Origin: a virus
Strand: one strand, 5' to 3'
DNA length: 64,000 nucleotides
Virus record (IMG/VR): IMGVR_UViG_3300042389_001427
Span: 1 to 64,000 of that record
The position numbers were made by a program, and so were the translations under genes. Below are positions 10,801 to 45,594 of the stretch, one piece after another. The notes under the pieces were generated by a model that saw only the letters and a program-made list of their open reading frames with translations, ran no database searches and was not told where the DNA came from. Every line of letters starts with the position of its first letter. The first letter of the stretch is position 1.

Positions 10801-13800
10801 ACTTCGGCGAGTCCCCCCGCCGAGCAACCCCGCCCGCCCCCGGCGGAAGAGTTGAATCTGTCTTCCGAACCCCGGAGGCGCCAAGGGCTGGAGAAGGTGT
10901 GGTCAATATGGGGGCTACCCCCGAACCGACAATTTGGCCCCCCAAAGCCCCCGCCGCCCAAGAACCGCCTAAAAAAGTCGTGACAATGTTTCAAGATGTC
11001 GTTACGGGGGCGACAGAGGGAGAGGGCTTTAAAATTGGACCTGTTGTAGAAGTCCGACCGTTTAAACCTGACGAGCTTAAAAAGCCTGACGAGCTTAAAA
11101 AGCCTGATGAATCTCAAGCCGAGCCGCCGACTCCCCCGCCGCCCGCGCCCCCCAAAGAAAAGCGCGCGCCCGAACAAATCGAAGCCGATCTCAAACGATG
11201 GGTCGCGCGGCTACTCGCGGCGGGCAAAGACACAAACCCGTTTGAAAAAGCAGTCGCGTTTAACGAATCGCGTATCGCGGATCAAACACTGAAGGCCGAA
11301 GCGCGATCCGCCGCAGCCAGATACCTTGCGATATTGCTTGATGCCTTTGAGGCGGAAAATCTCCAGCGGGACCTTCGATTAATCCCCCGCCTAGAAAGGA
11401 AGCCCGCAGTATTTGAAGAAACGGCGCCAGAGCCGCCCGCCGCGCCTCCCGATGAGGAGCCGAAAAAACAAAGTAAGAAGCCCGCAAAACAAGAGCCCCC
11501 CGATGAGGAGCCCCCGAAGCCGCCCAAGCCTCCGAAAAAACCGAAGATTGTCCCACCTGCCGTAACTCCCGCAACGCAGAAAGAATCGAAAAACAAAAAA
11601 GGCGCCCGGACTGCCAAGGCAGTTAAGTCAGAAAAAACGCCACAAGTTTCTGACAAAACCGATCCACAGAAGGCGAATCCTCCGACGGAAAAACAGGGTC
11701 AAATTTCCATCGAAAACAATGACGAAGTTCCTTCGGCGGAAGAGCTCATTGCTCTGAACCAGCAAGTGCTTGAAGCCCGGCCGAAAGGCTCTTCTTTTGG
11801 TTTTAGGCCTGGATTTGATTTTACAAATCTTGCCCCCGAGCGAGCGAAGTTTATCCGAAACAACCTGCAAGAGGCATTGAACCAGATTCCGAGATATCAA
11901 GCTCCTCAAGAAGAGCCAAGAATGTCCCGCGCTATGTCTCCAAATACCGAAGTTGAATCTGAGGTAGTAGATATAGAGAATCTTGCTGATGATGCAACAT
12001 ACGAGCAGATTGAGGAAGCCGCTCCAGCGACAATGGTAAACCTTAAAGCGTCTACTAAAAATGTCGCTGGATCATTTCAGCAATTCAGCAAAATTTTAGG
12101 AGATTCATTTAAGAGCTTAGTCAGATTTGCTCAAACTATCTGGGAAAAAATAGGAAAGCTAACAATTGCAGCAGCTGCAATATCTGTAGTTACATCCGCG
12201 CCAGTTGTTATTGAATATCAAAATCTTAAAGGCCCAGAAGGAAGGGCAGACCTTAGACCAACTGGTTTAATAAAAGACAAAAATAATTTATTTAAACTAT
12301 ATTTTAAAAAAACAACAATTGAGCAACTATCAAAATCTCTTGAGACTCCTGCTGAAACTCTTGATCTAATCCGCAATGCAATTAATCAAGCACAGCCATT
12401 TGTTGGGAATGTAGATATTGATTTTAACTCTATAGATCAATTTGCTGATAGTATAAACCCAGAGGAATTCCCTTCTGGAAATACAAAGAGGTCATACAAC
12501 TACAATCCTCTATTGGAAATATCAGCAGACGATGTTAAGAATGCAGCGCAATCATTAAAGTCTCTCGCCAAAGATAAAGCCAAGATAGAATCTCGGATAC
12601 GCCAAGTAATGGGCGCAATGGAGTTCTTCACTAAAAGAAAATTCACGGATGTAAAAATTATCGTTCGTCAAACAAGTCCATCTGAAGCGGCTACATTCAT
12701 GGCACTCGGAAGGGCTGGAGGATTCCCAACCTCAAGAGCGCTATATAATCCAAAAGAAAATACAATCGAGTTACAACCTCAGACATTAATCAGTCTTGCG
12801 GAGGATGGCATTGTAGCAACAAGTTCAGCTTCAAATTTAGCAAACGAACTTACTCACAACCTTCAGTATACCACAAACAATGGTCAACCATTAGGAATTT
12901 TAGATATTAAGTTATCCGACTTTGATACTGCATCTACATTTCTTACGATGCAAACGCCCATTTATTCCAAAAACGGGAAGCTGTTTCAAACGATTAACGC
13001 AGAATCAAATTGGGCAGATATATTGGTTGGAAAATATTTTGGAGCAAAAAATAATATACAACCTAAATCCATTGAATCGATTATTGCAGAGCAACCAAAA
13101 ATACAAAAAGCTCTACAAGAAAGAGAGACAACAGATTTTGTGGATGGCATTTCTGATATGTCAGGAATGTCTTCTCAAGAAATTATCCAGCCAGAGAATC
13201 CAGATATTCGGATGTCCCGTGCTGCGGGCAAGCGCAGGGTTGTCCGCCCTATAACGAAAAAGACTGGCGGGGGCAAAACCTATGAAGTGGGCGGCATCTT
13301 TGCTCGGGACGAGCTTCTTGATGCGCGGGCCGGGGACTTGGAGGTGCAGCGCAAGGCGAATGTCAAAGCCGACATAAGCCGAGTGGAAGACTTGTCCCGG
13401 ATACTCCGAAGCCAGATTCGAAATCTCTACAGAGGCAGGACTATCCCATATGACACTCTAAACACCGCGCTCGGCAACTTGGAAAATCCGCTCACAAATG
13501 AGCAACTCGACCGAATCGATGCGGTCCTTGAATCGCGGGGAGAAAGCGCGGCGAGTGCTCTGAAGAAGCAATTTTTGAGCGAAAACCGAGAGGCGTTTAA
13601 AAAGATCAAACAACCCCAGGCCCTCGCGAAACTGCCGAAGGAAATTGCCACCACCATCCGCGAAATGAGCGGTCATGTGGAGTCGTTGTCGCGCCAATTG
13701 CTCAACCAAAAGGTTGTTTGGGACGACCTCGCCATGACTGTGGACGAAGCCTTGGGCATCTACCTAAATCGAAGCTACGCAATTTTCGACGATCCGAATT

Positions 13801-16130
13801 GGGTTGACCGCGTTAAGAAAAACGAAAAAGTTATCGGAGCGGCTCGGCGATTTATAAAGAACGCAATTGTAACTCAAGAAGCCCAGCGGCTCATGGGTGA
13901 GGGGGTCGCGGCGGGCAAGCCGATTTCATTGATGGATGCTCGCGCAAAGGCAGCGAAATCCATACTTCCCGATGAAGTGGAGGAGGTCCTTGAAGGATAC
14001 CTGTCGATCGCGGAGTCTAGCCCCGACACTTCCATTCTTTCCGGCCGGGTTTTAGGTCAGAAAAATCTCTCCATTCTAAACAAGCGCGGCAACATCGCTC
14101 CTGAAATCCAAGCCTTGTGGGGGCGGTATGAAGACCCCTCGGTCAATTATGCGAAGACTATCGCGAAGCTGTCGGCTTTGGTGAACAACGATAAGTTTCT
14201 TCGCGAATTGGTAGACCTCGGAAAAAACGAGAATTGGATTTGGGACCCAAGTAATCCGAGCAATAAAACCGCAGCCCCGCCGAGAGGATATGTGAAGTTT
14301 GAATCTGGCAACAACAGATCGCTGCAGCCTCTCGGGGGGCTATACATGATCCCCGAACTCGCGAGAGGATTGAGGGAAACTGATTTGTCAGGCAACCCGG
14401 ATGAAATGGCGGCGTGGTATAAATTCTTCACAAAAGCGACTGCGCTTTCCATGGCCACGAAAACTGTGGGCTCTGCGGCCGGCCAAGTGAGAAACAACTT
14501 GAGCCAGATTTTCAGCTTTATCGCTTCGGGCAATTTGGGCATCGGGGATATCGCTAGTGGAAGGGTCGCCGGCAACCTCAAATTTGCAGCCCGCTCGGTA
14601 TTGGCCAAAAATTGGGGGCGGTATGGGAAGTCCATGACCCGCGATAAATGGCGCCCGATCATTGAAGATATGATTCGGCGCGGACTCATGGGTGAGTCGG
14701 TTTCCGTGGGACTCCTGGATGAGTTAATGCAGACAAGCCAGGCGCACGGGACCTCGGATTTTCAAGACACAATTTTCAAAAAAATTACTGCCCCGGTTGC
14801 CGCTACTTGGGACTTCGCCAAGCGGGCGTATGGCGCATCCGACGAATTGGGCAAAGTATTTATATACCTATCGGAAATGGAGAAATATCGCGAAGCATTT
14901 CCTAAATGGTCTGAAGAACAACTCAAGGATCAAGCGGCACGGAACGCGCGGAATGTGCATTGGACTTACTCGGAAGCCCCTCAAATCATTCAAGACATTA
15001 AAAAATTTCCGTTTATCGCCCCGTTCGTCACTTTCACATCCGAAGTTATTCGGACTACCGCCCAAACTATCAAGCTGGCTCGAGAAGAAATCGCCGAGGG
15101 TCGTCGAACCGGCAACGAGGCTCTCGAAAACATCGGGTGGCAGCGGGTTCGGGGGATGGCAATTGTTGCGATCGGTCCGACGCTCGTAGGGGCGGGGGCA
15201 ATGGCAATGGCCGGGATTGATGGCGACGATGAAGAGGCGTTGAGAAAATTCCTGCCCGACTGGCAGAAAAACAATCAGCTGCTCATGTTCCGCCGCGAGA
15301 ATGGAGAGGTTTCTTTCTTGGATGTGTCGTTCCTTGACTACTCCCAATACTTCAAAAAGCCTTTGGTCGCGCTCTACCGCTCATTTAAAAACGCCGATAA
15401 CGCATCAGAAATTCTTACCCAGGGCGCGGTTCAGATGGCAATGGAGGCCCTTGATCCGTTTACGGGTGAGCAGATTTTCTCGGGGGCAATCACAGATGCG
15501 TTGAGAAACCGAGATGCCTCCGGTCGCCAAGTTTACAACCCGCAAGACTCTCCCGAACGGATTGGGGCCGCGATCGCCAAGAAGATTTTTTGGGACCCGT
15601 TTGTTCCGGGGACCGTTACAAGCGGCTCAAGAATTTTGTCTGCGGCTACCGGGCAAGTTAGCGAAAGCGGCCGTGCCTACGATCTGATGAACGAACTCGG
15701 TAGCGTGGTGCTCGGTCAGCGAATTAGCTCTCTTGATGCCCAACAGAGCCTGCTATTCGCGGCGAACACTTTCTCCCGTCAGATGCGCGATGCGACGATG
15801 CTGTTCAACCGAGAGTTTAACGCCCGAGGAAGCCGAACTTCAGCCGATATAACGAGCGGGTATTCGAGGGCGAACGCCGCTAGAAAGCGGTTGACTGAAT
15901 GGCTTCGGGATCGGCAAAAGGCGGCGGTGACTTTGGGGCTCACCCGCCAACAGACGGAATCGATCTTGAAAAAAGGCAATCTCTCAAGCGATGCCGTGAA
16001 GTCAATTATGACGGGGGTTTACCCGAGATTCAAAGCAAGCGATGAATCCCTGTCGGAAGCCAATCCGGCGCGCGCTGCGGCGTATCGGGCAATCTTAAAC
16101 GACACCCCGGAAACCGAAATACTCCCGTGA
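4845..16130 (+). CDS. Giant polyvalent/ejection protein (3761 aa) with zincin-like peptidase domain
   Basis: A single 11.3-kb gene. About residues 60-400 are Ala/Gly-rich with amphipathic and membrane-like stretches (for example GAIAGAFATNYGQ, EGGTEYLQTGLEQAA), like the N-terminal part of large phage internal virion proteins. Two imperfect VFEEVSRLRQSL / SAEES repeat regions follow, then charged linkers. A zincin motif HELSH lies at about 1735-1739. A Pro/Lys-rich linker covers about 1960-2330. An AT-rich inserted module at about 2364-2788 carries a degenerate NELTH motif near 2667-2671. The C-terminal third (about 2790-3761) resembles the helical terminal domain of large polyvalent phage proteins (KFPFIAPFVTFTSEVIRTT). 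Such proteins are packaged and ejected with the DNA and may carry anti-host enzymes. The role here is inferred from family resemblance. Confidence 0.8.
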   Translation: MLKPDELQKILGIGEAVIRRMPQVRDEEMLLQPRAQGSQIVDQEPEEEELLTPRKRLQLLGLNPDDEISVSIPRTLTEEFTAGVARGTDQLQAMGGGAVGLLAEAVGVKPLADWGLDTYRSNMEEAALNAASIQDPFEEIEGVGDLVRYTVGMLGEQSPQLLTSIVGAGIGGKAGQVIVKKAITDEMKRRVAAGMTEKAAAAEVAKRVADASARALRTNAAKEALKEGTKRGAIAGAFATNYGQIAGGSFGQIEQETGQRAPLEAAAFAVPGAGLETAFEVLLASKISGAFRPAKGAKVTPGSVATGVGIGVTQGSVLEGGTEYLQTGLEQAAVGAADPNQTISDRVLTDKAERERRIAGVAGMVVGGPLGGVGGGVESLAPLTMRSLRDPETGDPTPPPTDLEADGWSQPVDVDGVTLRQHSQGVWAAFNTPEDFLPELPRVPFSSGEVGVLLPQDYKNSSMLIARGRALLDPAPPVGDSAANDTSDPEDDEEPADIPSIGAQPGRAVKSAEESAAVFEEVSRLRQSLTGASSLQGDLRAQEEVTAALADKPLPPDAKPEIKSAQESAEAMLAADSPAPTEEPTAKNAATASSLRQDLKSREDKASSVVFPAQNESLGQIWGDIITSLQQSPTKSAEESAGVIAESDRQSEIEMARQAQLENNSRRSPLDAALLAQRLDRSDKLATEKLDRRDKLATARAERIKQEQTRAELEARPQEQAVAFVGGLNTGDRVTLNFKETVRNQVTGKLDEVEQTKDAFFAGRRDNGNVILNVGTLNPDQTSFVGSTERMELTPSEFSKIGIASPPKFMPRSPVEQAILNLVGNNPTVETLEEKLGAPYTGKDQSQSLTIKDGLSTDPIPIRVKWFNKRGEKGTLIPRATGVFTNSPLMTVRQMNQGLRVVVPDAALGKIDPDIQVEKRGGKNIVTTVNLWGKTYRQGKDASDFRVNEMSVSEGIQGDRDRQQTGPEGRGLIAQVDDFGRPIEPRKTFEARGLFAFDSIWRNSPERIAQSKAQTARADAELFAIADSDFDTALRSLDSKEERKKLQVSNPKMLEVALKVRGLLGKVDNLDEVDRAFLENEFARGAAFINKSRFDDEAKGLAIVALRQRVIEEFAKRAGRDKAETRVGSSQYTRLFLDSLDEIRNARIKDTTKSATKKVDKIRNTPSKLSDEELESGKLSSERERALFARETNRGQKGTEQDIDAAVARSIEKLRRKKAFNWMMTPEETEQLLKLRDREKEEAASRKKKGLRPKKRQIYDRMPEEDAKAELELVAERYKKLGNYKGKGVTDQIFNPISAAKGAALNAARAIRRREQGSIIDLAPDFFEDTTDFSDANPQMAQEPVEKAFEAPQGKQVAQEGAEPAAPQVSKGETPIDKKIKTGLVATTPQERLEVVFKINEDLTSEDREIALASLMTKTDESGRKIKGQKSGLTTEEKARSKVIKKYLNNEITYEQLYPNTGRRTGRPADSGGGNVRRDPQGGAEPIQSRGRRSQGADADGRPGRVDGGAATTTGDIPTPEAETSGGRPVRPTLEPEAARNISRVAQRIFVQSFAGLSDEEMSRLTPAEIAAAYSAILSKTDSEAALRGKNAVSETAGSMADLAGKSGQELLEGFSVEYREAQNNIERANQIRKNLGRLLKSRAFAGVTPFLEAVAKDRSNTGSQRIRAREFLKLIRRGVELDNLAVQVGNYFNESGEEVSWAGVLGQSSDGDLSIVLNLAQRHDRADAVETYLHELSHVGGLAKALRQIKLNPAESRALDQLTAFREEAILKAAEKIGVPLQQGVPPDFAQLAKAIYDKAESENRQDARAYAGLLDIGEFVVEITNNPELAALLADLGLGEAAPGQKNSILGAIRQAWDASVNLMGGVNADVNSPLAAAFKNSWLINFANMGAELTALSDFTLPRVRRSKLREEIDNMQRAANFVEGEIEARNLAGTTEERAELLKEYKKANKRNKKPTAEPQPPAAPSGFSTQGFNAGIVTEPNFGESPRRATPPAPGGRVESVFRTPEAPRAGEGVVNMGATPEPTIWPPKAPAAQEPPKKVVTMFQDVVTGATEGEGFKIGPVVEVRPFKPDELKKPDELKKPDESQAEPPTPPPPAPPKEKRAPEQIEADLKRWVARLLAAGKDTNPFEKAVAFNESRIADQTLKAEARSAAARYLAILLDAFEAENLQRDLRLIPRLERKPAVFEETAPEPPAAPPDEEPKKQSKKPAKQEPPDEEPPKPPKPPKKPKIVPPAVTPATQKESKNKKGARTAKAVKSEKTPQVSDKTDPQKANPPTEKQGQISIENNDEVPSAEELIALNQQVLEARPKGSSFGFRPGFDFTNLAPERAKFIRNNLQEALNQIPRYQAPQEEPRMSRAMSPNTEVESEVVDIENLADDATYEQIEEAAPATMVNLKASTKNVAGSFQQFSKILGDSFKSLVRFAQTIWEKIGKLTIAAAAISVVTSAPVVIEYQNLKGPEGRADLRPTGLIKDKNNLFKLYFKKTTIEQLSKSLETPAETLDLIRNAINQAQPFVGNVDIDFNSIDQFADSINPEEFPSGNTKRSYNYNPLLEISADDVKNAAQSLKSLAKDKAKIESRIRQVMGAMEFFTKRKFTDVKIIVRQTSPSEAATFMALGRAGGFPTSRALYNPKENTIELQPQTLISLAEDGIVATSSASNLANELTHNLQYTTNNGQPLGILDIKLSDFDTASTFLTMQTPIYSKNGKLFQTINAESNWADILVGKYFGAKNNIQPKSIESIIAEQPKIQKALQERETTDFVDGISDMSGMSSQEIIQPENPDIRMSRAAGKRRVVRPITKKTGGGKTYEVGGIFARDELLDARAGDLEVQRKANVKADISRVEDLSRILRSQIRNLYRGRTIPYDTLNTALGNLENPLTNEQLDRIDAVLESRGESAASALKKQFLSENREAFKKIKQPQALAKLPKEIATTIREMSGHVESLSRQLLNQKVVWDDLAMTVDEALGIYLNRSYAIFDDPNWVDRVKKNEKVIGAARRFIKNAIVTQEAQRLMGEGVAAGKPISLMDARAKAAKSILPDEVEEVLEGYLSIAESSPDTSILSGRVLGQKNLSILNKRGNIAPEIQALWGRYEDPSVNYAKTIAKLSALVNNDKFLRELVDLGKNENWIWDPSNPSNKTAAPPRGYVKFESGNNRSLQPLGGLYMIPELARGLRETDLSGNPDEMAAWYKFFTKATALSMATKTVGSAAGQVRNNLSQIFSFIASGNLGIGDIASGRVAGNLKFAARSVLAKNWGRYGKSMTRDKWRPIIEDMIRRGLMGESVSVGLLDELMQTSQAHGTSDFQDTIFKKITAPVAATWDFAKRAYGASDELGKVFIYLSEMEKYREAFPKWSEEQLKDQAARNARNVHWTYSEAPQIIQDIKKFPFIAPFVTFTSEVIRTTAQTIKLAREEIAEGRRTGNEALENIGWQRVRGMAIVAIGPTLVGAGAMAMAGIDGDDEEALRKFLPDWQKNNQLLMFRRENGEVSFLDVSFLDYSQYFKKPLVALYRSFKNADNASEILTQGAVQMAMEALDPFTGEQIFSGAITDALRNRDASGRQVYNPQDSPERIGAAIAKKIFWDPFVPGTVTSGSRILSAATGQVSESGRAYDLMNELGSVVLGQRISSLDAQQSLLFAANTFSRQMRDATMLFNREFNARGSRTSADITSGYSRANAARKRLTEWLRDRQKAAVTLGLTRQQTESILKKGNLSSDAVKSIMTGVYPRFKASDESLSEANPARAAAYRAILNDTPETEILP
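11934..13212 (+). other. AT-rich inserted module inside the giant gene
   Basis: The base composition drops sharply to AT-rich between a copy of codons for RMSRA (about 11928-11942) and a second copy (about 13209-13223). The reading frame is kept throughout. The module encodes a hydrophobic segment (IAAAAISVVTSAPVVIEY) and an NELTHNLQY motif resembling a zincin HExxH site with the first His lost. Flanking duplicated codons plus different composition suggest a recent acquisition of a domain. Confidence 0.7.
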
Positions 16131-27196: not shown

Positions 27197-27236
27197 GTTC
27201 CGAGGGGAACGAAGGGTTGAAATCCGTTGAACGGAT
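27197..27236 (-). repeat. Intergenic cassette: hairpin plus palindrome, copy 3
   Basis: GTTCCCCTCGGAAC (27197-27210) and ATCCGTTCAACGGAT (27222-27236). The final A of the amidotransferase stop TAA is the first base of the palindrome. Confidence 0.85.
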
Positions 27237-28246
27237 TAATCAATGATGAGGCCGGAGTGTGACTTGGCTGCGGGATCGTAGTCGGGAAACGACTCGGCGG
27301 TTTGCGCGGAGGTTGTTTCGAGAGAGGCGCCGTCCCAATCGTCATCGAACTCCGCCTGGGTCATCGGACTGGAATGCCACTTGCGCCCGCCGTAAGAGCG
27401 AAAGCTGTCCGAGCAGCCCCCACCATTGTGGTTGATCTTGTAGCCGAGCGAACGCTGGGCGTAGCTTGCCTGCTTTGCGGTTGTTGCGCGGTGTGTCCAC
27501 ACCGAGACATCGGGGTCACCGCCGCGCGGCTTGAACTCCAACCAAGTCCAAGCATCGAGCTTGTAAGCAATGAAGTTCTTGCAGCGCCAAGCCTCCCCCA
27601 CGGCTTCCACAATATGCTCGGTTGTGCCGAACACCCACCGCCCCTTGGTGGTCACCGCGCCGTATAGCGAAGCGGTGTCATCCACGGCAACGATGAGGCG
27701 CCCATCCGGGGCGGCGGCGAGAAACGCGGCGTAGCCCGAGATGTTTTCGAGTGCCTCCTTCTGCTGCTCGACGGAGTTGTGATCCGTGAAGCAGTATAAG
27801 AGATGTTGAGAGTCACAAGTCGCGGACTTGTGCTCATCGGTCTGCGCCCCGTTCCAACTCACGACGCCGTTGTGGGCGAGCGTCCATCCCTTGTGCCGGA
27901 ATGGATGCGTGTTGTGCAGATCGATGCCGCAAGTGGCAGTCCTGCCGTGTGCGATGAGCGGTTTGTTCTTCGAGTAACGCCCTGTCTGCTCGGCGTGGGA
28001 CGCCGCGCGGAACGCATCGAAGCCCCCACGGGAAAGGCGGCGGAGAAGCGGGAGCTCCTCCATGCCCTTGAAGTCATTGGGCTCCACGAAGCGGGCGTGG
28101 AGAGCGGATGCGCCGGGTTGCGCGAATCCGAACCCATCCTGCTGGGTCGGGGTTATTACTTTAGCCGCCGCACAAAGAGCGCGGTTGGCTGCGGGTTTGT
28201 TCAGGGGCAGTTGGTTGGACGATGTCCAGGCCATAAGTTTGCACAT
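27236..28246 (-). CDS. Class II glutamine amidotransferase (Ntn hydrolase)
   Basis: 336 residues. Cys2 directly follows the initiator Met, so Met removal would expose the catalytic N-terminal cysteine. LIAHGRTATCG (about 97-107), NTHPF (112-116), LAHNGVV (123-129) and a CDSQ motif (about 144-147) are the glutamine-binding and oxyanion-loop motifs of GATase II. The C-terminal 120 residues are Gly/Ser/Asp-rich and unlike known domains. It would release ammonia from glutamine for the adjacent amidoligase-like enzyme or act as an amidase. The stop touches a palindrome. Confidence 0.85.
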   Translation of the reverse strand: MCKLMAWTSSNQLPLNKPAANRALCAAAKVITPTQQDGFGFAQPGASALHARFVEPNDFKGMEELPLLRRLSRGGFDAFRAASHAEQTGRYSKNKPLIAHGRTATCGIDLHNTHPFRHKGWTLAHNGVVSWNGAQTDEHKSATCDSQHLLYCFTDHNSVEQQKEALENISGYAAFLAAAPDGRLIVAVDDTASLYGAVTTKGRWVFGTTEHIVEAVGEAWRCKNFIAYKLDAWTWLEFKPRGGDPDVSVWTHRATTAKQASYAQRSLGYKINHNGGGCSDSFRSYGGRKWHSSPMTQAEFDDDWDGASLETTSAQTAESFPDYDPAAKSHSGLIID

Positions 28247-35760: not shown

Positions 35761-37199
35761 AACAAAGGCTCGATTTTATACCGATGAATTTTCTTGGGGC
35801 CGCTTCTCTTCCTAACGAGTGAGATGCCAGTGCCTGGGCGGTTTGAAAGTTGCGCCAATTGTTGCCCGATGTTCCTGACGGACCACTCCCTTGTGAGGGA
35901 AGAGTTGTCGAACACATCATGCAAAGACTGGTGCAGATCGACAGCAGTCCCCTCCCAAGCCACTTTTTGAACTTCAGAGGCTCGGCGTTTCCACCATGTG
36001 TCGAGCACGGACAAGAGTTGCGCCCCCGATGAAGAAGCATCATTCAACTCGCGTATCTCCGGGGACACGAAGCTCTTGATGCCATACCGAGATTTCTTGT
36101 CCTGCACTTCGTCCGGCACGGTCCACGATTTGAGCCACGCCAAAAAGTGCGAAAGCTCTTCTTGTTCGAGCCCGATAAATTCCTCCGGGGCGGGGGCCCC
36201 CTCCCACCGCTTCATCGCAAGGATGATCATCTTGTCCTCGTTGGATAGATCGCGCTGCGGGATGACTTGGATCGAGACGGGGTCGTCGTTTGTGGCGATC
36301 ACCACTCGCCCCGCCCATTCCACCACAGTCGGGGTTAGGAATTTTTCGTGGTAGGTATGCTTGGCGTGAGCCGCCAGCTTTTTAATCGTCGCGGAATACC
36401 TTGTGCGTTGCGTTTCGTTGGCAAGCCCTTTGGAGTCATCCACAATGGCGAGCGGCGATGAGAACACCTCCGCGTTGAATCCATTGTTCTCCCCCGCCGC
36501 CATTGAGGACAGGTCCGCGTAGCCCCCCATTGCCGGGGTTAGGAGCCGCTCAATTGTGAAGGATTTGTAGCATTGCACCGGTCCGCAGAGGACCATGGTT
36601 TGCCCGAGAAGGGGTTTGCCGTTTTCGGCACTCTCATAGAATCTCTTTAGCCACGCCAAGAGGTAGTGGAGGTATTCTTGAGTCGCAAAAACATTGTCCA
36701 AGACCTTCGCGTATCTTGGGAATAAAACCCCCCACGCCTGCGCTGCCGGGGCGGCGGGCCAGAGTTTGGCGGTTGCGATGTTCAGAAACTTCTTACCCCC
36801 GTGTTCCCATATGGGGCGGGGGTGGTAGAGAGCGGGACCTGCTCCATCCACCCTTCGGTGTGTCCGAATGAACGACTTCACCCGATCCATCGGCGACGCC
36901 GAGGCCCCCTTGGGAACTTTCTCGGAGAAACCCCTTTCCTTTAGGGTCGCGGTTGCAAACGATGCCGCCTCGTATCTCCAGACTCCGTCTCCCCCGCGCA
37001 TGAAGACATTTCGCCCATCGTAATAGAGGTCATCTACGAGCATCGGATCGATGTCTCGTTCCGGGAACGCGGCCGCGGCAGCCTCCCTTAATTGCTCTAA
37101 ATTGACCGGGGTCGAAAAGTCCGGCGATGCGGCATTCACTTCTATCGGGTCTTGAAGAATTTCTGGATTGGAGTCGTTGATGGGTTCGGGTTCAGCCAT
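35757..37199 (-). CDS. SF3/D5-like replicative helicase
   Basis: 480 residues. Walker A GPVQCYKS (about 206-213), Walker B LAIVDDS (about 250-256) and a sensor region VVIATNDDPVSIQVIPQRDL fit virus-type superfamily 3 or D5-like helicases, which unwind DNA at the origin as hexamers. The N-terminal part (about 1-140) is acidic and unlike known domains; the C-terminal region could be a winged helix. It overlaps the primase-like gene by 58 bases, a common pairing in phages. Confidence 0.75.
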   Translation of the reverse strand: MAEPEPINDSNPEILQDPIEVNAASPDFSTPVNLEQLREAAAAAFPERDIDPMLVDDLYYDGRNVFMRGGDGVWRYEAASFATATLKERGFSEKVPKGASASPMDRVKSFIRTHRRVDGAGPALYHPRPIWEHGGKKFLNIATAKLWPAAPAAQAWGVLFPRYAKVLDNVFATQEYLHYLLAWLKRFYESAENGKPLLGQTMVLCGPVQCYKSFTIERLLTPAMGGYADLSSMAAGENNGFNAEVFSSPLAIVDDSKGLANETQRTRYSATIKKLAAHAKHTYHEKFLTPTVVEWAGRVVIATNDDPVSIQVIPQRDLSNEDKMIILAMKRWEGAPAPEEFIGLEQEELSHFLAWLKSWTVPDEVQDKKSRYGIKSFVSPEIRELNDASSSGAQLLSVLDTWWKRRASEVQKVAWEGTAVDLHQSLHDVFDNSSLTREWSVRNIGQQLAQLSNRPGTGISLVRKRSGPKKIHRYKIEPLL

Positions 37200-38071: not shown

Positions 38072-39880
38072 TTAGGTTATGGGGTTATTATTAGAGGTCA
38101 ACAACTCATTGAACAGGGTTCGGAACGCAACTTCGCAAGTTTGTGCAACCACTCCGTTTCCGAGAAGTCTCAATTCATCGTTTCGATTTGTGTTCAGAAC
38201 CATCCATTGATGAATCTCAACCAATTCCTCGTGACGGAGGCGGGGCAGTTCGGAGACGCCCACCCCAGCGGGAGCCCCATCAATGTCTCTACCCAGCGAG
38301 GCGAGAGCCGCGATTTCGGAGTTTTCCCGACCATCTCCACCTGTTGATTGATTGTCTGCGATTGCAGCACCATCTCCCCGGTCGGGGTTTTTCGGTATGC
38401 CCGCTCCCCCGGCCGCGCAGGTTGGCCATCCTTGGTGTAGAGGGTTTCCACTTTCGCACCCGCTTCCTGCGCTTGGGGCGTCCTCCAATCCACTTTGACT
38501 TGTGTTGCCAAAGGCATCGTCGCCACATCGCCCTTCTCCTGCCGCTTCTTCCATACCTCGGGGTTTTCCTCCGTCGTCTCCCCCGAGCGCGGAGTTGCCC
38601 ATTGCTTCTCCATCTGCCACGCAAGGTTCGGCTGCCCCCCATCTTTCCGCTCCGGGTGGTGTATGGTTGGCTGGCCATCCCCCGTTTTCGGAGTCAACCA
38701 CTCGCGGCGGCTCCCACCAGAATTGCGCGAATCCGGGGCGGGATGGCCAAAACCAGGCACTTGAACAAGTCTCGCCAACCCCAACGATGCCGAATGCCCC
38801 GACTGAACTATTCTCCGAGGGAGTTGCCCCGTCCAATAGACTTGATCCTTCTCCCCCCAAATCTCCATGATGGAGGCTTCCGGGGTCGGCCAATTCAAGT
38901 TCTTGTTGACCTGGGACACGAGCGTCTCCCTGCGGCTGTCCTTCGGGTTCACATTGCTTGAGTCGTCCTCCTGCGGCGTTAGCCAGTTCCCCTCCTTGGC
39001 CACCGCCTCCCGAAGTTGATACCCCTTGCCCCCGTTCGGGCCCACCTTGACTCTCTGCATTGAGGGGGAGTTGGAGTCCGTGCTTCTCGCGGTCGGCCAG
39101 TTCGCCACTGCATTGGGCAGCGTGTCCGGGGGGTTCCCCTTGCGCTCCTGCCTGCCCGCACCGCTCTCGCCTTTGTAATCCCGCGCTGCAACTGTCGGCC
39201 AATTTCTCTCCTCCTTGATCGCCGCAATATGCAGCAGACCAGTGTGCCCCGCCCCCTCTATTTCTTGCGAGGGCGTTATCCCACCTTGTTTCCCATCCTG
39301 GCTCGTCGCGGTGGGCCAAGATAAAAATTCGTTTCCTCTGGTGGGGGGCCCCGACCTCGCTCGCGCTAAAAATGCCTGCCGTCGCGCGGTAACCCACTCT
39401 TTCCAATTCTCGAAGGACATGGAGCAAAACTGGAGTCCCCGGCGGATCGTTCCAGCCGTCGCCTGCGAGCTTTGCACTGACAATGCCCTCGACATTTTCC
39501 AAGAAAACAAGGGAAGGTCCGCAACGCTTGATTCCATCAAGGATGGCGGGGAAGAGGTGTCGTCCATCGGCATCGGCTGCTCTACGGCCAGCGGCTGAAA
39601 AGGGCTGACATGGAAAGCCTCCCGAAACCAAACTGACGCCTTGAAATTCCTCCCAAGGGAATGTGCGTAGATCAGTCCAGATCGGAGCCGCAGGAAGGAG
39701 CCCGCCTTCCATTTTCGCAAGAGCATTTTCCAAGCTAAAGGACTCGATCTCGCATACAGCGGCGAGTCGTAATAGCCTTCCAAAGACTCTATCAAGTCCG
39801 AGGTCAATTCCCCCGTATCCGAAGCACAGGCTGATGTGCGAGAGTTCGGGTTTCCAAGCAGGTTTTTCGGTAATATCCAC
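38072..39880 (-). CDS. C5 cytosine DNA methyltransferase
   Basis: 602 residues from a GTG at 39880. FGYGGIDLGLDRV (motif I), VSGGFPCQPFS (motif IV, catalytic Cys about 91), LVFLENVEG (motif VI), GAPHQRKRIFILA (motif VIII) and LRLLGNGVVAQTCEVAF (motif X) are in order. Between motifs VIII and X lies an unusually long region (about residues 215-560) of Gly-rich repeats with ELAD/LANA/GNS units. This middle part coincides with a second meaningful reading frame. The enzyme would methylate phage DNA against restriction. It ends 3 bases before the primase-like gene. Confidence 0.85.
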   Translation of the reverse strand: MDITEKPAWKPELSHISLCFGYGGIDLGLDRVFGRLLRLAAVCEIESFSLENALAKMEGGLLPAAPIWTDLRTFPWEEFQGVSLVSGGFPCQPFSAAGRRAADADGRHLFPAILDGIKRCGPSLVFLENVEGIVSAKLAGDGWNDPPGTPVLLHVLRELERVGYRATAGIFSASEVGAPHQRKRIFILAHRDEPGWETRWDNALARNRGGGAHWSAAYCGDQGGEKLADSCSAGLQRRERCGQAGAQGEPPGHAAQCSGELADREKHGLQLPLNAESQGGPERGQGVSTSGGGGQGGELANAAGGRLKQCEPEGQPQGDARVPGQQELELADPGSLHHGDLGGEGSSLLDGATPSENSSVGAFGIVGVGETCSSAWFWPSRPGFAQFWWEPPRVVDSENGGWPANHTPPGAERWGAAEPCVADGEAMGNSALGGDDGGKPRGMEEAAGEGRCGDDAFGNTSQSGLEDAPSAGSGCESGNPLHQGWPTCAAGGAGIPKNPDRGDGAAIADNQSTGGDGRENSEIAALASLGRDIDGAPAGVGVSELPRLRHEELVEIHQWMVLNTNRNDELRLLGNGVVAQTCEVAFRTLFNELLTSNNNPIT

Positions 39881-39882
39881 AT
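38194..39882 (-). CDS. Overlapping second frame with WPTP repeats (possible dual coding)
   Basis: 562 codons, open in the +1 frame of the methyltransferase. Its ATG at 39882 overlaps the GTG of the methyltransferase (ATGTG). The N-terminal 190 residues have no motif. From about residue 190 on there are repeated NWPT(P/A).A.D units and near the C-terminus LSPRWVETLMGLPLGW, which I recall from the C-terminal regions of phage methyltransferase-associated proteins (LNPRWVE.LMG.P.GW). The repeats in the two frames come from the same DNA repeat. Expression is unproven; an alternative is a shadow frame. Confidence 0.45.
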   Translation of the reverse strand: MWILPKNLLGNPNSRTSACASDTGELTSDLIESLEGYYDSPLYARSSPLAWKMLLRKWKAGSFLRLRSGLIYAHSLGRNFKASVWFREAFHVSPFQPLAVEQPMPMDDTSSPPSLMESSVADLPLFSWKMSRALSVQSSQATAGTIRRGLQFCSMSFENWKEWVTARRQAFLARARSGPPTRGNEFLSWPTATSQDGKQGGITPSQEIEGAGHTGLLHIAAIKEERNWPTVAARDYKGESGAGRQERKGNPPDTLPNAVANWPTARSTDSNSPSMQRVKVGPNGGKGYQLREAVAKEGNWLTPQEDDSSNVNPKDSRRETLVSQVNKNLNWPTPEASIMEIWGEKDQVYWTGQLPRRIVQSGHSASLGLARLVQVPGFGHPAPDSRNSGGSRREWLTPKTGDGQPTIHHPERKDGGQPNLAWQMEKQWATPRSGETTEENPEVWKKRQEKGDVATMPLATQVKVDWRTPQAQEAGAKVETLYTKDGQPARPGERAYRKTPTGEMVLQSQTINQQVEMVGKTPKSRLSPRWVETLMGLPLGWASPNCPASVTRNWLRFINGWF

Positions 39883-41694
39883 TTATGCCTTCCTATAGAT
39901 TTTTGAGATGTGGGCATCCGCCCCAAGCGGTAGCCCCCGACACCACGACGGGGGATTGCCCATGATTGAGAGCAGCTGTTCTTTCTTTGCGGCGGCCTCC
40001 TGCTCATCGACCAGCACAACGACTTCGTCATGCACCCGCAAAATTATCTCAAATCCCTGCGACTCAAGTTCGTAGCAGCGATCCATAAAAACATCCCGAG
40101 CAAAGCCTTGCGTGAGGTTTTCTGTTAGCAGCCCCCCGTAAAGTTTGCAGCGCATCATCTTGCCGTCCTTCGGAAGGAGCCCACTAAAGCCCCCGTCCCT
40201 AACCACATCGTAATATCGTAGCGTTCTACTACTTGGTAAGGTTATTTCTAATAGACGATCGACGAGGCTATCCTTCAACGCACCCTCCAAAAACCTCCAA
40301 AGGTTTATAATTTTCGGGTTCTGTCTGCGGTAATCCCGCACAATCTTTTCGGACTCTTCATCGCTAATTTCGAGCCCTGCCATGAGTTTGGCTACGAGCT
40401 TGAACTTCGCGGGGCCGCACCCGTAGCCGAGCCCGAGAACCCTCGCCTTTGCGAGTTGACGCATCTTTGGATCGACATCTTTGAGAGAGCGCGGGTCATC
40501 ATACCCCATCGTCGCGCGGGCGTGGGCTTCATAAACATCCGCGCCACCTTCCATTAGCTTTAGCGAGTCGGTGTCTTTGGCGAGGTAGCAAATGCACCGG
40601 GCTTCAATTTGCGCGAGATCGGCAATGATCAAAGTCTTGCCCTCCGGGGCCTCAATGAGGCTCCTCAAATCCACGCCGGCAACAGTGCCTCTCGGGATGT
40701 TTTGACAGTTCCACCCTCCCCCTCCGCTATCCCGCCCTGTAGCGGCCCCGAAATATCGTAATTCATACGGCATTCGCGCAATCTCGCCTCCCGACTCAAT
40801 TGTCCTTGTAAGCATGGTATTCACTGTCTTTAGGTGCTTGTTGGCTTTCCTAAAGTCGCGCACAGCGGTCACCCAAGGATACACGCCCGAAAATTCCTCC
40901 TCCCACCGAAGCCCCTCCGGGTCTTTCTCCGCAAAAGACGCAGGCGCCCAAATCCCCTCAACTTCACATTGGTTGCGGATTGCTTGTAGCGAAAGAGGCG
41001 GTAAGTCTCCTCCGATCCACGGCAGCTTTTGCAAGGCCACCTCGCACTCTTCTTGAAGTTTTTTCTGGGACTCTTTTAGCCGATCCCAATTCACGGGAAC
41101 GCCGCGCATCCCCATTTCCCGCGTCATTTGGGAAATTGATCTTTCAAACCCCGGCCACTTCCCCCCGTGCTTTTGCCACAAATTCAGAGTGTTCTTTGTG
41201 TCCAAGAAAGCGTATTCGCAAACTTCGCGTTTGAAGTCATCCGTCATCTCCTCCCACTTTTTGCCGTTCATTTGATCGCGAGTCGTCTTTTTTACCTCAA
41301 CCCCGAGAAGGTGCTTGGAAGCCTCTTTAAGTGAGCGGGGGTATCCCAAATAAGCCGCGAGATCGGCGGTATCGAAAATTCGCGCGGGCGAGACTCCGGG
41401 GATGGCCCCCGTTTCTACGAGGCAATTGAAAAGCGTGAGATCGAAGCCCGCGTTGTGCATGATCCAATCGCGCCCGTTTACACGATCCCACGGGGCGGTT
41501 TTAGGATGCCCGACGAATGACCATTCGCCGCTGCACATAGCCACTAAATAAATATCAGTCGCCCTGGCGTATTTGTAGGCCCCCAAAGTGACGACAGAAG
41601 TGTGCTTGTCGTAATACGCTTCGAAATCGATGGCGACTGTGTGTGTCACAGGAAAAAAATCCTCGGCGGCGACCAAGGGCAGCGGGGAACCCAT
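39883..41694 (-). CDS. polA-like: Family A DNA polymerase with 3'-5' exonuclease domain
   Basis: 603 residues. Exonuclease motifs VAIDFEAYYD (Exo I), MHNAGFDLTLF (Exo II) and YAFLDTKNT (Exo III) occupy the N-terminal third. Polymerase motif A LIIADLAQIEARCI has an Ala where most have Ser or Tyr. Motif B is RQLAKARVLGLGYGCGPAKF, and motif C LRVHDEVVVL (about 553-562). The family replicates phage DNA. It is shorter than Pol I because the 5'-3' nuclease is absent. The stop is followed directly by the overlapping ATG/GTG of the methyltransferase. Confidence 0.92.
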   Translation of the reverse strand: MGSPLPLVAAEDFFPVTHTVAIDFEAYYDKHTSVVTLGAYKYARATDIYLVAMCSGEWSFVGHPKTAPWDRVNGRDWIMHNAGFDLTLFNCLVETGAIPGVSPARIFDTADLAAYLGYPRSLKEASKHLLGVEVKKTTRDQMNGKKWEEMTDDFKREVCEYAFLDTKNTLNLWQKHGGKWPGFERSISQMTREMGMRGVPVNWDRLKESQKKLQEECEVALQKLPWIGGDLPPLSLQAIRNQCEVEGIWAPASFAEKDPEGLRWEEEFSGVYPWVTAVRDFRKANKHLKTVNTMLTRTIESGGEIARMPYELRYFGAATGRDSGGGGWNCQNIPRGTVAGVDLRSLIEAPEGKTLIIADLAQIEARCICYLAKDTDSLKLMEGGADVYEAHARATMGYDDPRSLKDVDPKMRQLAKARVLGLGYGCGPAKFKLVAKLMAGLEISDEESEKIVRDYRRQNPKIINLWRFLEGALKDSLVDRLLEITLPSSRTLRYYDVVRDGGFSGLLPKDGKMMRCKLYGGLLTENLTQGFARDVFMDRCYELESQGFEIILRVHDEVVVLVDEQEAAAKKEQLLSIMGNPPSWCRGLPLGADAHISKIYRKA

Positions 41695-43218: not shown

Positions 43219-45594
43219 TTAAGAGATTTTTTTTAGGTATTGAACCTTGCCTTCGACCTTCGCGGCATCCGCGTCTATGAGAGCATCTCGGAGAGCCGCT
43301 TTGGCTTTTGCCATTTGCCCCCGCTCCGCCGTCCGAGCAATCGCTTTTTCGAGATCGCCGATCGAAATGTCCGCGCAAGCAGCAAATGCTTCGGGCGTAA
43401 TTCTGTCTTTTACAACTTCCCACGCCGATTGAGCATTTGTAATCTTGAATGGCGCGTTTTTCTCCGCGAGTTCAAACCCCGGTATTTCAATGCCCTCATC
43501 ACGCCGCATTTCCAAGGCGCGGCGTTCGACTTTTTCAGCCCAGGATTTCATAATCGGAGAGAGTCTCTTTGCCAGAGACATTTTCTCTGGATCGGTTATC
43601 AGCGCGGGGTCATAATGCGCGGGGATTGTAAGTTCCTCTGGCTTGTATTCCTTCGCGATAGACAAGGCGATTTCTCGAAGTTTCGGGCATTCCGCTCGCC
43701 GCAAGCACCAGCTACAGTGCGCTCCGGTCGCGTAATCTTCCACACGATCGCGTTCCGCAGCCGCGATTATCGCGGACACTTTGCCCGCCAAGCGATCGTA
43801 GTCATCGCGGGTCCAAGTCTCCAAGTCGATTACGCCTTGAAAGGGAAGGAGCACATGGACATTTATGGTGGCGACTTGGGGGTGCGCGTCGAAAATTCCA
43901 ATAGCGTAAGCCCAAAACTGCGGGCTATCCGCTGTGTATTTGCCCCAAGCAAATTTGTAGTCCACCAACTCTGCGGAGTCGCCATGCAAAATGATGTGGT
44001 CGATGTGCCCGAATTGATCGAGCACCTGGTATCGTCGTTCGCGAATTTCCTCAAAATTGGAAAGGATGCGCCCGCGAAGTTTAGCCAGATACTTTAAGCA
44101 AAGTTCCACGGCTTCGCGGAGCTTTGGATCGTCGGATGGAACAATGTCGAGGTTTTCCTTTTCGACCGCCGCGTGACCGAGAGTCCCTCGGTCTGCCGCA
44201 CTTTGATCGCGTGTGTTGTCATTTCTCCACCCGCAGCATTTGGCTTTTTCCTTTAACGAGGAAGGCGAGTGTTTGCTGTGCTCCCGCTCGGGTTGCGGGG
44301 TTATTATTTGGGTCATCGGCCGTGAGACAACCTCACCCGCTCCTTCGTTCAAAAATTTTACATTTTCTCTTTTTTGGGAAGTCATCTCTAGCGCGCGCTC
44401 CTCTACGCCCCCCGGCACAAAAAGTCTGACCGCAACAGCCCGCCCCTTTGCTCCGACCCGAGCTATCCTCCCAAGAGCTTGCTCTTCTACGAGCCCCGAA
44501 AACTGCGGGCATATTAGCGCGACGCGGGGGTTTTTCCCGCTTGTGTCGTGCAGATCGATGCTTTGTCCGCCCGCCGCGATTTGAACGATGATCATTTTTA
44601 ATTCACCGCTTTGAAATTTTTCCTGCGCGGCGATTCGATTTTCGCTGCTAACGCGCCCATCGAGAACCCCTGCCTCGGGGTTTAGTTTTTGAAGTTCGTC
44701 GATGCTCGCGTGAAAGTTCAAAAAAACGACAGCCGATCCGCCGGCTTCAACTACTTCTTTCGCTCGATCGCTCAAAGCGCGCACTTTTACAAGCTCGATG
44801 GCCTGGCGCTGACGCAGGTTTTTTACTCCTCCCGGATCGTCGGGCTCGGTCATGTTTTTATAGAGTTCTCGTATTTCGGAAAAGTCATCTTTCGTAAGGC
44901 AGAGCGGCTCGTCCGAAGTCATTAGTTCCGGCAATTGCTCTCTCAAAACCCGCTCCGGGACTCGATGCCCCCGAGAAGTAAAAATGCTATCGTGGATTTT
45001 TTTCATCTGTTCTTTGTTTGCGGGATCGCTCGCGTCCCAGGCTAAACCGCCCCAATCCCCGTCGGTAGCCCCCATTTTACGGGCCCAGGTCCAGAAGCCG
45101 CGAGGGTGGAACATCCTTAATTGGCCCCCGATATTTTTCATCCGCAACGGGGACTCCGCTGCGGTCGCCGAAAGCATCAATGTTGGGATTCCTATGGCAC
45201 ACTCAAGGAGTTTGCCGTTCTGGGAGTCGTGCGCTCCGAAGCAGTGGGCCTCATCAAAAATCAAGAGAGTGCCTTTTGGAACCGCCCACTCAAATTTTGG
45301 CCGGCCGTTTGTCGGTATTTTTTTAACCCAGCCGCTCCCCCCGGTTCGAAGTTTTTCTGGGTTCAAGACAAAAAGCGGAGAAACGCCGAAAGCCGCGAGC
45401 GTTTTTCCCCATTTTGCAATGACTGACTTCGGGCATACAACGCCAACTCGTAGACCATATCGCGCAGCCACAGCGGATGCGATAACAGTCTTCCCTCCGC
45501 CGCACCCGGTTCCATCTAAAGAAGCCCCAACAGAGTCTAAAATTTTTAAGTGGCGCTCAACAGCCTCTTTTTGGTATGGAAATAAAGTGAACAT
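43219..45594 (-). CDS. SF2 helicase fused to a RecB/Cas4-type (DUF2800-like) nuclease
   Basis: 791 residues. N-terminal SF2 helicase: GTGCGGGKT (Walker A, about 28-36), FDEAH (about 113-117), LSATAAES, and a C-lobe with QALGRIARVGAKGRAV. From about 445 the domain changes: SPSSLKEKAKCCGW, ADRGTLGHAAVEK, DHIILHGDSAELVDYKFAWGKY (PD-(D/E)XK signature with D...DxK), ATGAHCSWCLRRAEC, then an unknown C-terminal part. Such nucleases with helicases process DNA ends for recombination. Fusion of both in one chain is notable. Confidence 0.8.
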   Translation of the reverse strand: MFTLFPYQKEAVERHLKILDSVGASLDGTGCGGGKTVIASAVAARYGLRVGVVCPKSVIAKWGKTLAAFGVSPLFVLNPEKLRTGGSGWVKKIPTNGRPKFEWAVPKGTLLIFDEAHCFGAHDSQNGKLLECAIGIPTLMLSATAAESPLRMKNIGGQLRMFHPRGFWTWARKMGATDGDWGGLAWDASDPANKEQMKKIHDSIFTSRGHRVPERVLREQLPELMTSDEPLCLTKDDFSEIRELYKNMTEPDDPGGVKNLRQRQAIELVKVRALSDRAKEVVEAGGSAVVFLNFHASIDELQKLNPEAGVLDGRVSSENRIAAQEKFQSGELKMIIVQIAAGGQSIDLHDTSGKNPRVALICPQFSGLVEEQALGRIARVGAKGRAVAVRLFVPGGVEERALEMTSQKRENVKFLNEGAGEVVSRPMTQIITPQPEREHSKHSPSSLKEKAKCCGWRNDNTRDQSAADRGTLGHAAVEKENLDIVPSDDPKLREAVELCLKYLAKLRGRILSNFEEIRERRYQVLDQFGHIDHIILHGDSAELVDYKFAWGKYTADSPQFWAYAIGIFDAHPQVATINVHVLLPFQGVIDLETWTRDDYDRLAGKVSAIIAAAERDRVEDYATGAHCSWCLRRAECPKLREIALSIAKEYKPEELTIPAHYDPALITDPEKMSLAKRLSPIMKSWAEKVERRALEMRRDEGIEIPGFELAEKNAPFKITNAQSAWEVVKDRITPEAFAACADISIGDLEKAIARTAERGQMAKAKAALRDALIDADAAKVEGKVQYLKKIS

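What the first reader, a model, noticed from the sequence alone, without database searches (positions are those of the whole stretch)
38072..39882. Two long meaningful frames in the cytosine methyltransferase gene
The -1 strand encodes a C5 methyltransferase (38072-39880) and, in the shifted frame, a 562-codon ORF with repeated NWPTP and a C-terminal PRWVETLMGLPLGW, a signature I remember from phage proteins. The start codons overlap as ATGTG. The repeats ELAD in one frame and NWPT in the other come from one DNA repeat. This may be true dual coding, or a frameshifted fusion in which the WPTP frame supplies a domain to the methyltransferase.
Basis: partly seen in the sequence, partly recalled or inferred. 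Interest (0 to 1): 0.75.

Follow-up and report, generated by a model that had tools for sequence, protein, structure and literature searches.

The report
Phage methyltransferase read in two frames
One stretch of phage DNA encodes two proteins in overlapping reading frames, apparently the catalytic part and the DNA-recognition part of one cytosine methyltransferase, and the same double-coded gene occurs in viruses and bacterial genomes of several phyla, where annotation often shows only one of the two proteins.

Summary
On the minus strand a 602-codon C5-methyltransferase ORF (M, 38072-39880) and a 562-codon ORF (W, 38194-39882) share 1,687 nt, with starts overlapping as ATGTG behind one Shine-Dalgarno-like site. 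It is true dual coding. In 54 divergent clusters of relatives, M has no stop between motif VIII and the W motif IX in 48 (1.7 expected if only W were kept); W has none in the catalytic segment in 38 (6.4 expected); the third frame is open in 0 and 1. Substitutions show selection passing from M (motifs I-VIII) to W (WPTP modules and a motif IX-like LSPRWVETLMGLP) and back to M (motif X). W is homologous to phrog_1008. Relatives carry motif X in W, or motifs I-VIII, IX and X in one protein, never two copies of X. Best explanation: a two-polypeptide C5-methyltransferase, M giving the catalytic core and motif X, W giving motif IX and probably target recognition, each translated from its own start. 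Nearest precedent: the split enzyme M.EcoHK31I (motif IX on the small polypeptide). No conserved slippery site was found. The near-complete overlap, WPTP modules and cross-phylum spread make it a new variant. Expression and activity are untested.

The parts
38072..39880 (-). M: cytosine-C5 methyltransferase ORF, 602 aa, GTG start; motifs I-VIII and X
   Evidence: PF00145 E 3e-25 over residues 15-196; GNGVV motif X at the end; open frame conserved in relatives
38194..39882 (-). W: overlapping ORF in the frame +1 to M, 562 aa, ATG start; WPTP modules and a motif IX-like C-terminus
   Evidence: phrog_1008 E 2e-11; codon-position substitution pattern; stop avoidance
39888..39894 (-). AGGAAGG, Shine-Dalgarno-like site 5 nt before the W ATG, usable by both starts
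   Evidence: sequence
39878..39882 (-). Overlapping start codons ATGTG (W ATG, M GTG)
   Evidence: sequence; W ATG 2-8 nt before the M start in relatives
39323..39829 (-). Catalytic part of M: motif I (39794-39829), IV PCQ (39596-39622), VI ENV (39491-39499), VIII QRKRIF (39323-39340)
   Evidence: PF00145 match, invariant columns of M alignment A3
38329..39318 (-). Array of eight W-x-T-(P/A/V) modules in W, residues 189-518; in M the same DNA reads as LAD/LAN repeats
   Evidence: W-type substitution pattern
38696..38749 (-). Conserved island of M inside the linker, WPSRPG..Q..WEPPR
   Evidence: invariant columns, M-type substitution pattern
38329..38487 (-). Most conserved W domain, WRTPQAxEAGA..VETL.TK.G.PA.PG..AYR...G..VLQSQTINQQVEM
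   Evidence: invariant columns of A2; beta hairpin predicted with pLDDT about 90
38260..38307 (-). Motif IX-like segment in W, LSPRWVETLMGLPLGW
   Evidence: the equivalent segment lies within a full-length PF00145 match in the one-frame relatives L205 and L213; W-type substitution pattern
38147..38173 (-). Motif X of M, LRLLGNGVV
   Evidence: alignment A3; M-type substitution pattern in the bin after motif IX

Best explanation
The DNA encodes a two-polypeptide cytosine-C5 methyltransferase in two overlapping frames of one mRNA. Ribosomes start at an ATG (W) or at a GTG 2 nt further on (M), served by the same Shine-Dalgarno-like site. M supplies the SAM-binding and catalytic core (motifs I-VIII), a long poorly conserved linker with one conserved island, and motif X. 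W supplies motif IX and, by inference, the target-recognition region built of WPTP modules. The two assemble into one enzyme that methylates phage DNA, presumably against host restriction. Shown by sequence analysis: both frames are conserved, under selection and kept open, and the motif IX-like segment lies only in W. Inferred: assembly in trans, WPTP modules as recognition elements, and the protective role.
For: All W relatives found carry M in overlap unless the contig is cut. Stop avoidance in both frames over 54 clusters, with the third frame as control (also 34). Substitution profile M to W to M along the gene. Conserved W start just upstream of the M start. Motif X is found once per locus: in M in 120, in W in 9, never in both. 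One-protein relatives join I-VIII, LPTP modules, IX and X in a single frame, and PF00145 covers their motif IX. The model of one such protein has M.HhaI as its best structural match. M.EcoHK31I and M.AquI show that C5-methyltransferases can work as two polypeptides.
Against: No expression, interaction or activity data. W alone is predicted largely disordered (pLDDT 44) and matches no solved structure. The LPTP modules are also low-confidence in the one-protein model, and their number varies from 0 to 5 in such proteins, so their recognition role is not shown. The selection on the N-terminal part of W is weaker than on the rest.
Confidence: 0.72

Rival explanations
1. Programmed frameshifting joins the frames into one chain: motifs I-VIII from M, recognition region and motif IX from W, then motif X from M again.
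For: Selection follows exactly this order along the gene, and one-protein relatives exist.
Against: It needs two shifts of opposite sign in the window type. M is kept open between VIII and X and W is kept open upstream of VIII, which this model does not need. W has its own conserved start. No strong slippery heptamer lies between IX and X in 120 loci, and strong ones after VIII occur in only 2.
Confidence: 0.1
2. Both proteins are made, but W has a separate function (for instance in anti-restriction or regulation) and is not a subunit of the methyltransferase.
For: No interaction data; W has no recognised fold.
Against: M has no motif IX in its own frame while W has one; in relatives the W-type segments are in frame with the methyltransferase; no W away from a methyltransferase was seen except at contig ends or where the motif search failed.
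Confidence: 0.14
3. Only W and the catalytic part of M matter; the M reading between VIII and X is an unused shadow of the W modules.
For: M is far less constrained than W between VIII and IX.
Against: M stops are avoided there (0 seen, 5-13 expected per locus; 51 against 281 over clusters), and the island WPSRPG..Q..WEPPR has an M-type pattern.
Confidence: 0.03
4. The second frame is a chance ORF in a GC-rich, repetitive gene.
For: Permutation alone gives long W frames (mean longest 205 codons).
Against: conserved W homologs with W-type substitutions.
Confidence: 0.01

Closest known systems
M.EcoHK31I, two-polypeptide C5-methyltransferase (PMC3404938, citing Lee, Kam and Shaw 1995)
   Same: Large polypeptide with motifs I-VIII and X; motif IX on a separate small polypeptide. 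From memory, not checked: the small polypeptide is also read from an overlapping alternative frame.
   Different: Its predicted recognition domain is assigned to the large polypeptide; here the DNA after motif VIII is selected mainly in the W frame. Here W starts before M, overlaps it almost fully and has WPTP modules. Homology of W with the EcoHK31I small polypeptide was not tested.
M.AquI, split C5-methyltransferase (PMC3404938)
   Same: Two polypeptides complement each other, split between VIII and IX.
   Different: Motif X is on the small subunit there; in the window it is on M. Nine relatives, such as L028, do carry X in W.
phrog_1008 ('DNA methyltransferase')
   Same: W and 13 of 13 other W proteins match it.
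   Different: The family profile also contains a motif X-like end (matched by M), so it seems to include forms with X in the W frame; it says nothing about overlap.
Paenibacillus phage Shelly gp55/gp56
   Same: Depositors annotated the W homolog as a hypothetical protein, 'g55 internal gene', inside the methyltransferase gene.
   Different: W is shorter (234 aa) and starts inside the catalytic part; no function was proposed there.
Mycobacterium phage Tweety gp72 and Babsiella gp54
   Same: Motifs I-VIII, LPTP modules, a motif IX-like WMMGWP and motif X.
   Different: All in one reading frame, as a natural fusion.

Membership tests
C5-cytosine DNA methyltransferase (PF00145) | Motifs I, IV (PCQ), VI (ENV), VIII (QRKR) in M | tested here: met
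   PF00145 E 3e-25 over residues 15-196; invariant columns
C5-cytosine DNA methyltransferase (PF00145) | Motif IX and motif X in the same polypeptide as I-VIII | tested here: not met
   X is in M, the motif IX-like segment only in W
M.EcoHK31I-type two-polypeptide C5-methyltransferase | Large polypeptide with I-VIII and X, motif IX on the other polypeptide | tested here: met
   motif map of M and W; definition from PMC3404938
M.EcoHK31I-type two-polypeptide C5-methyltransferase | Recognition domain on the large polypeptide | tested here: inconclusive
   after motif VIII selection is mainly on W, but M keeps a conserved island
M.EcoHK31I-type two-polypeptide C5-methyltransferase | Both polypeptides needed for methylation | not testable with these tools
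   needs expression and methylation assay
M.EcoHK31I-type two-polypeptide C5-methyltransferase | Sequence homology of W with the EcoHK31I small polypeptide | not tested
M.AquI-type split C5-methyltransferase | Motifs IX and X together on the small subunit | tested here: not met
   X is in M in the window; X in W in 9 other loci
phrog_1008 | Profile match of W | tested here: met
   E 2e-11 for the window W, 14 of 14 members of A4

The most novel reading that the evidence does not exclude
A widespread and old class of (pro)phage C5-methyltransferases is encoded as two subunits in almost fully overlapping frames, with selection passing from one frame to the other and back, and with an array of WPTP modules as a shuffling recognition region. 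Annotation has hidden it because often only one of the two frames is kept.
Probability: 0.55. Interest if true: 0.85.

Novelty: new variant of a known kind. Interest (0 to 1): 0.7.

Why it matters
More than a kilobase of same-strand dual coding kept in several bacterial phyla and their viruses would be an unusually clear case of overlapping genes in prokaryotes, with a plausible reason for it: two parts of one enzyme made from one message. It would explain why many phage methyltransferases seem to lack motif IX, and correct annotations that keep only one frame (Acidovorax phage gp46 and a Sphingomonas plasmid gene are W; phage C75C1 is M). It also gives a system in which each frame can be silenced without changing the other protein, so that the claim is directly testable.

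Tried and rejected
Programmed frameshifting: no conserved slippery heptamer. Full synonymous resampling of sequence pairs assumes saturation and was replaced by codon-position rates and stop counts. Flanking ORFs as a rate control were noisy because their true frames are uncertain; the comparison along the gene itself was used instead. The first W alignment A1 mixed frames in several rows, because both frames are open, and was remade. PDB search and Foldseek with W gave nothing useful. The plasmid search gave one hit, a Sphingomonas plasmid with the same overlap. No held paper describing the phage overlap was found in ten literature searches; the EcoHK31I paper itself is not held. Chance ORF: rejected.

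Full report
OBSERVATION. The minus strand carries M (38072-39880, 602 aa) and W (38194-39882, 562 aa), W being in the frame +1 to M. The upstream DNA polymerase ORF ends in TAA directly before the W ATG; the GTG of M follows 2 nt later; AGGAAGG stands 5 nt before the ATG. W has eight W-x-T modules, and the LAD/LAN repeats of M are the same DNA. Permuting synonymous M codons never gave a W frame as long as the observed one in 20,000 trials.

WHAT THE TWO FRAMES ARE. M matches PF00145 only over motifs I-VIII and holds motif X (GNGVV) near its end. W matches phrog_1008, as do 13 of 13 further W proteins, and its C-terminal part holds LSPRWVETLMGLPLGW. In two relatives where such a sequence lies in one frame with the rest (L205, L213), PF00145 aligns over almost its whole length (2-313 and 1-319 of 324) in one stretch, so the sequence occupies the place of motif IX.

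BOTH FRAMES ARE USED. Thirty-two viral loci were found with W alone as query; a homologous M frame lies in overlap with W in them, whole or in part where the contig is cut, with split or shifted frames in a few such as L005, L028 and L031. The W start is an ATG 2-8 nt before the M start, followed by a conserved W(I/T)(L/I/V)P, in the 21 loci shown. If only W were kept, 5-13 stops would be expected in M between motif VIII and the end of the overlap; none is seen in 18 loci tested. If only M were kept, 1.3-3.4 stops would be expected in W over the catalytic part; again none is seen. Over 54 divergent clusters from viruses and bacterial genomes there are 28 W stops against 115.7 expected in the catalytic segment (38 clusters open, 6.4 expected, third frame 1), and 51 M stops against 281.3 expected between VIII and IX (48 open, 1.7 expected, third frame 0). 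Codon usage for these nulls came from the same overlapping genes, which makes them conservative. One bias remains: many loci were found through W. But of the 80 loci found through similarity to a methyltransferase, 27 show motif IX in the frame +1 to M by the classifier, and about 20 more by inspection.

WHERE EACH FRAME IS SELECTED. Mismatch rates by codon position, as M1=W3 / M2=W1 / M3=W2: first 60 nt 0.19/0.03/0.20 (both frames held); 60-240 nt about 0.16/0.09/0.25; 240-360 nt 0.18/0.11/0.43 (M alone); 360-540 nt about 0.19/0.08/0.25; after motif VIII 0.27/0.09/0.12; around the conserved W hairpin domain 0.31/0.07/0.03; motif IX bin 0.33/0.08/0.02; the next 60 nt, which lead into motif X, 0.12/0.04/0.31. 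Selection thus passes from M to W and back to M. Silent sites of M are held at about half the rate of the 240-360 nt segment over most of the catalytic part, which suggests that the N-terminal part of W is constrained too. Within the W-dominated part M keeps one island, WPSRPG..Q..WEPPR, with an M-type pattern (0.18/0.19/0.31).

NATURAL VARIANTS. A motif classifier called 163 of 253 loci: motif IX in the frame +1 to M in 154, at offset 2 in one (L005, an indel), in one frame in 8; motif X in M in 120, in W in 9, unseen in 26, never in both. Actinophage methyltransferases of the Tweety type carry 0-5 LPTP modules, IX and X in frame with I-VIII in one protein. A model of one of them (L180) has confident catalytic and C-terminal parts, disordered LPTP modules, and M.HhaI as its best structural match. 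The fusion in some lineages and the single copy of X that moves between frames are the main arguments that M and W form one enzyme.

SPREAD. Genome contigs with the arrangement carry titles from Verrucomicrobia, Alphaproteobacteria, Paenibacillus and other Firmicutes, Bacteroidetes, Spirochaetes and Polyangium. Depositors kept both frames in Paenibacillus phage Shelly ('g55 internal gene'), M only in phage C75C1, W only in Acidovorax phage Alfacinha3 gp46 and in the gene table of a Sphingomonas plasmid, which omits pseudogenes.

KNOWN PRECEDENT. M.EcoHK31I has motif IX on a separate small polypeptide, and M.AquI is split before IX (PMC3404938). I recall, without being able to check it, that the EcoHK31I small polypeptide is read from an overlapping alternative frame. 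The window therefore works like M.EcoHK31I and is a variant with near-complete overlap, WPTP modules and a W that starts first.

LIMITS. There are no expression or activity data. W alone is not modelled with confidence. The recognition role of the WPTP modules is inferred from their place between VIII and IX and from the one-protein relatives. Motif calls rest on regular expressions, and 90 loci were not called, some because contigs end inside the gene.

Noticed in passing
L015:3695-6895: The W frame runs on without a stop for 1,067 codons into a downstream RecB/Cas4-like nuclease-type sequence, a possible natural fusion of W with the next gene.
   Followed up: no
window 43219-45594 (-): One ORF joins a helicase (phrog_62) and a DUF2800-type exonuclease (phrog_69), which are separate families.
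   Followed up: no
window 4845-16130 (+): A 3,761-aa ORF; only residues 2961-3566 match a known family (phrog_22602, virion structural protein).
   Followed up: no
window 27236-28246 (-): ORF with a match to phrog_4736, L-glutamine-D-fructose-6-phosphate aminotransferase (E 1e-8), possibly a metabolic gene of the phage.
   Followed up: no
window 37142-37199 (-): The next two ORFs, one primase-like (phrog_2597) and one with DUF5906, also overlap, by 58 nt.
   Followed up: no
L016, L027, L030, L032: Blocks of W modules are 97-98% identical between loci whose other parts differ and lie at different distances from the start, which suggests exchange of modules.
   Followed up: partly
L166, L213, L252: Compact relatives with motifs IX and X in the M frame still have a WPTP-bearing ORF in another frame that ends before IX.
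   Followed up: partly
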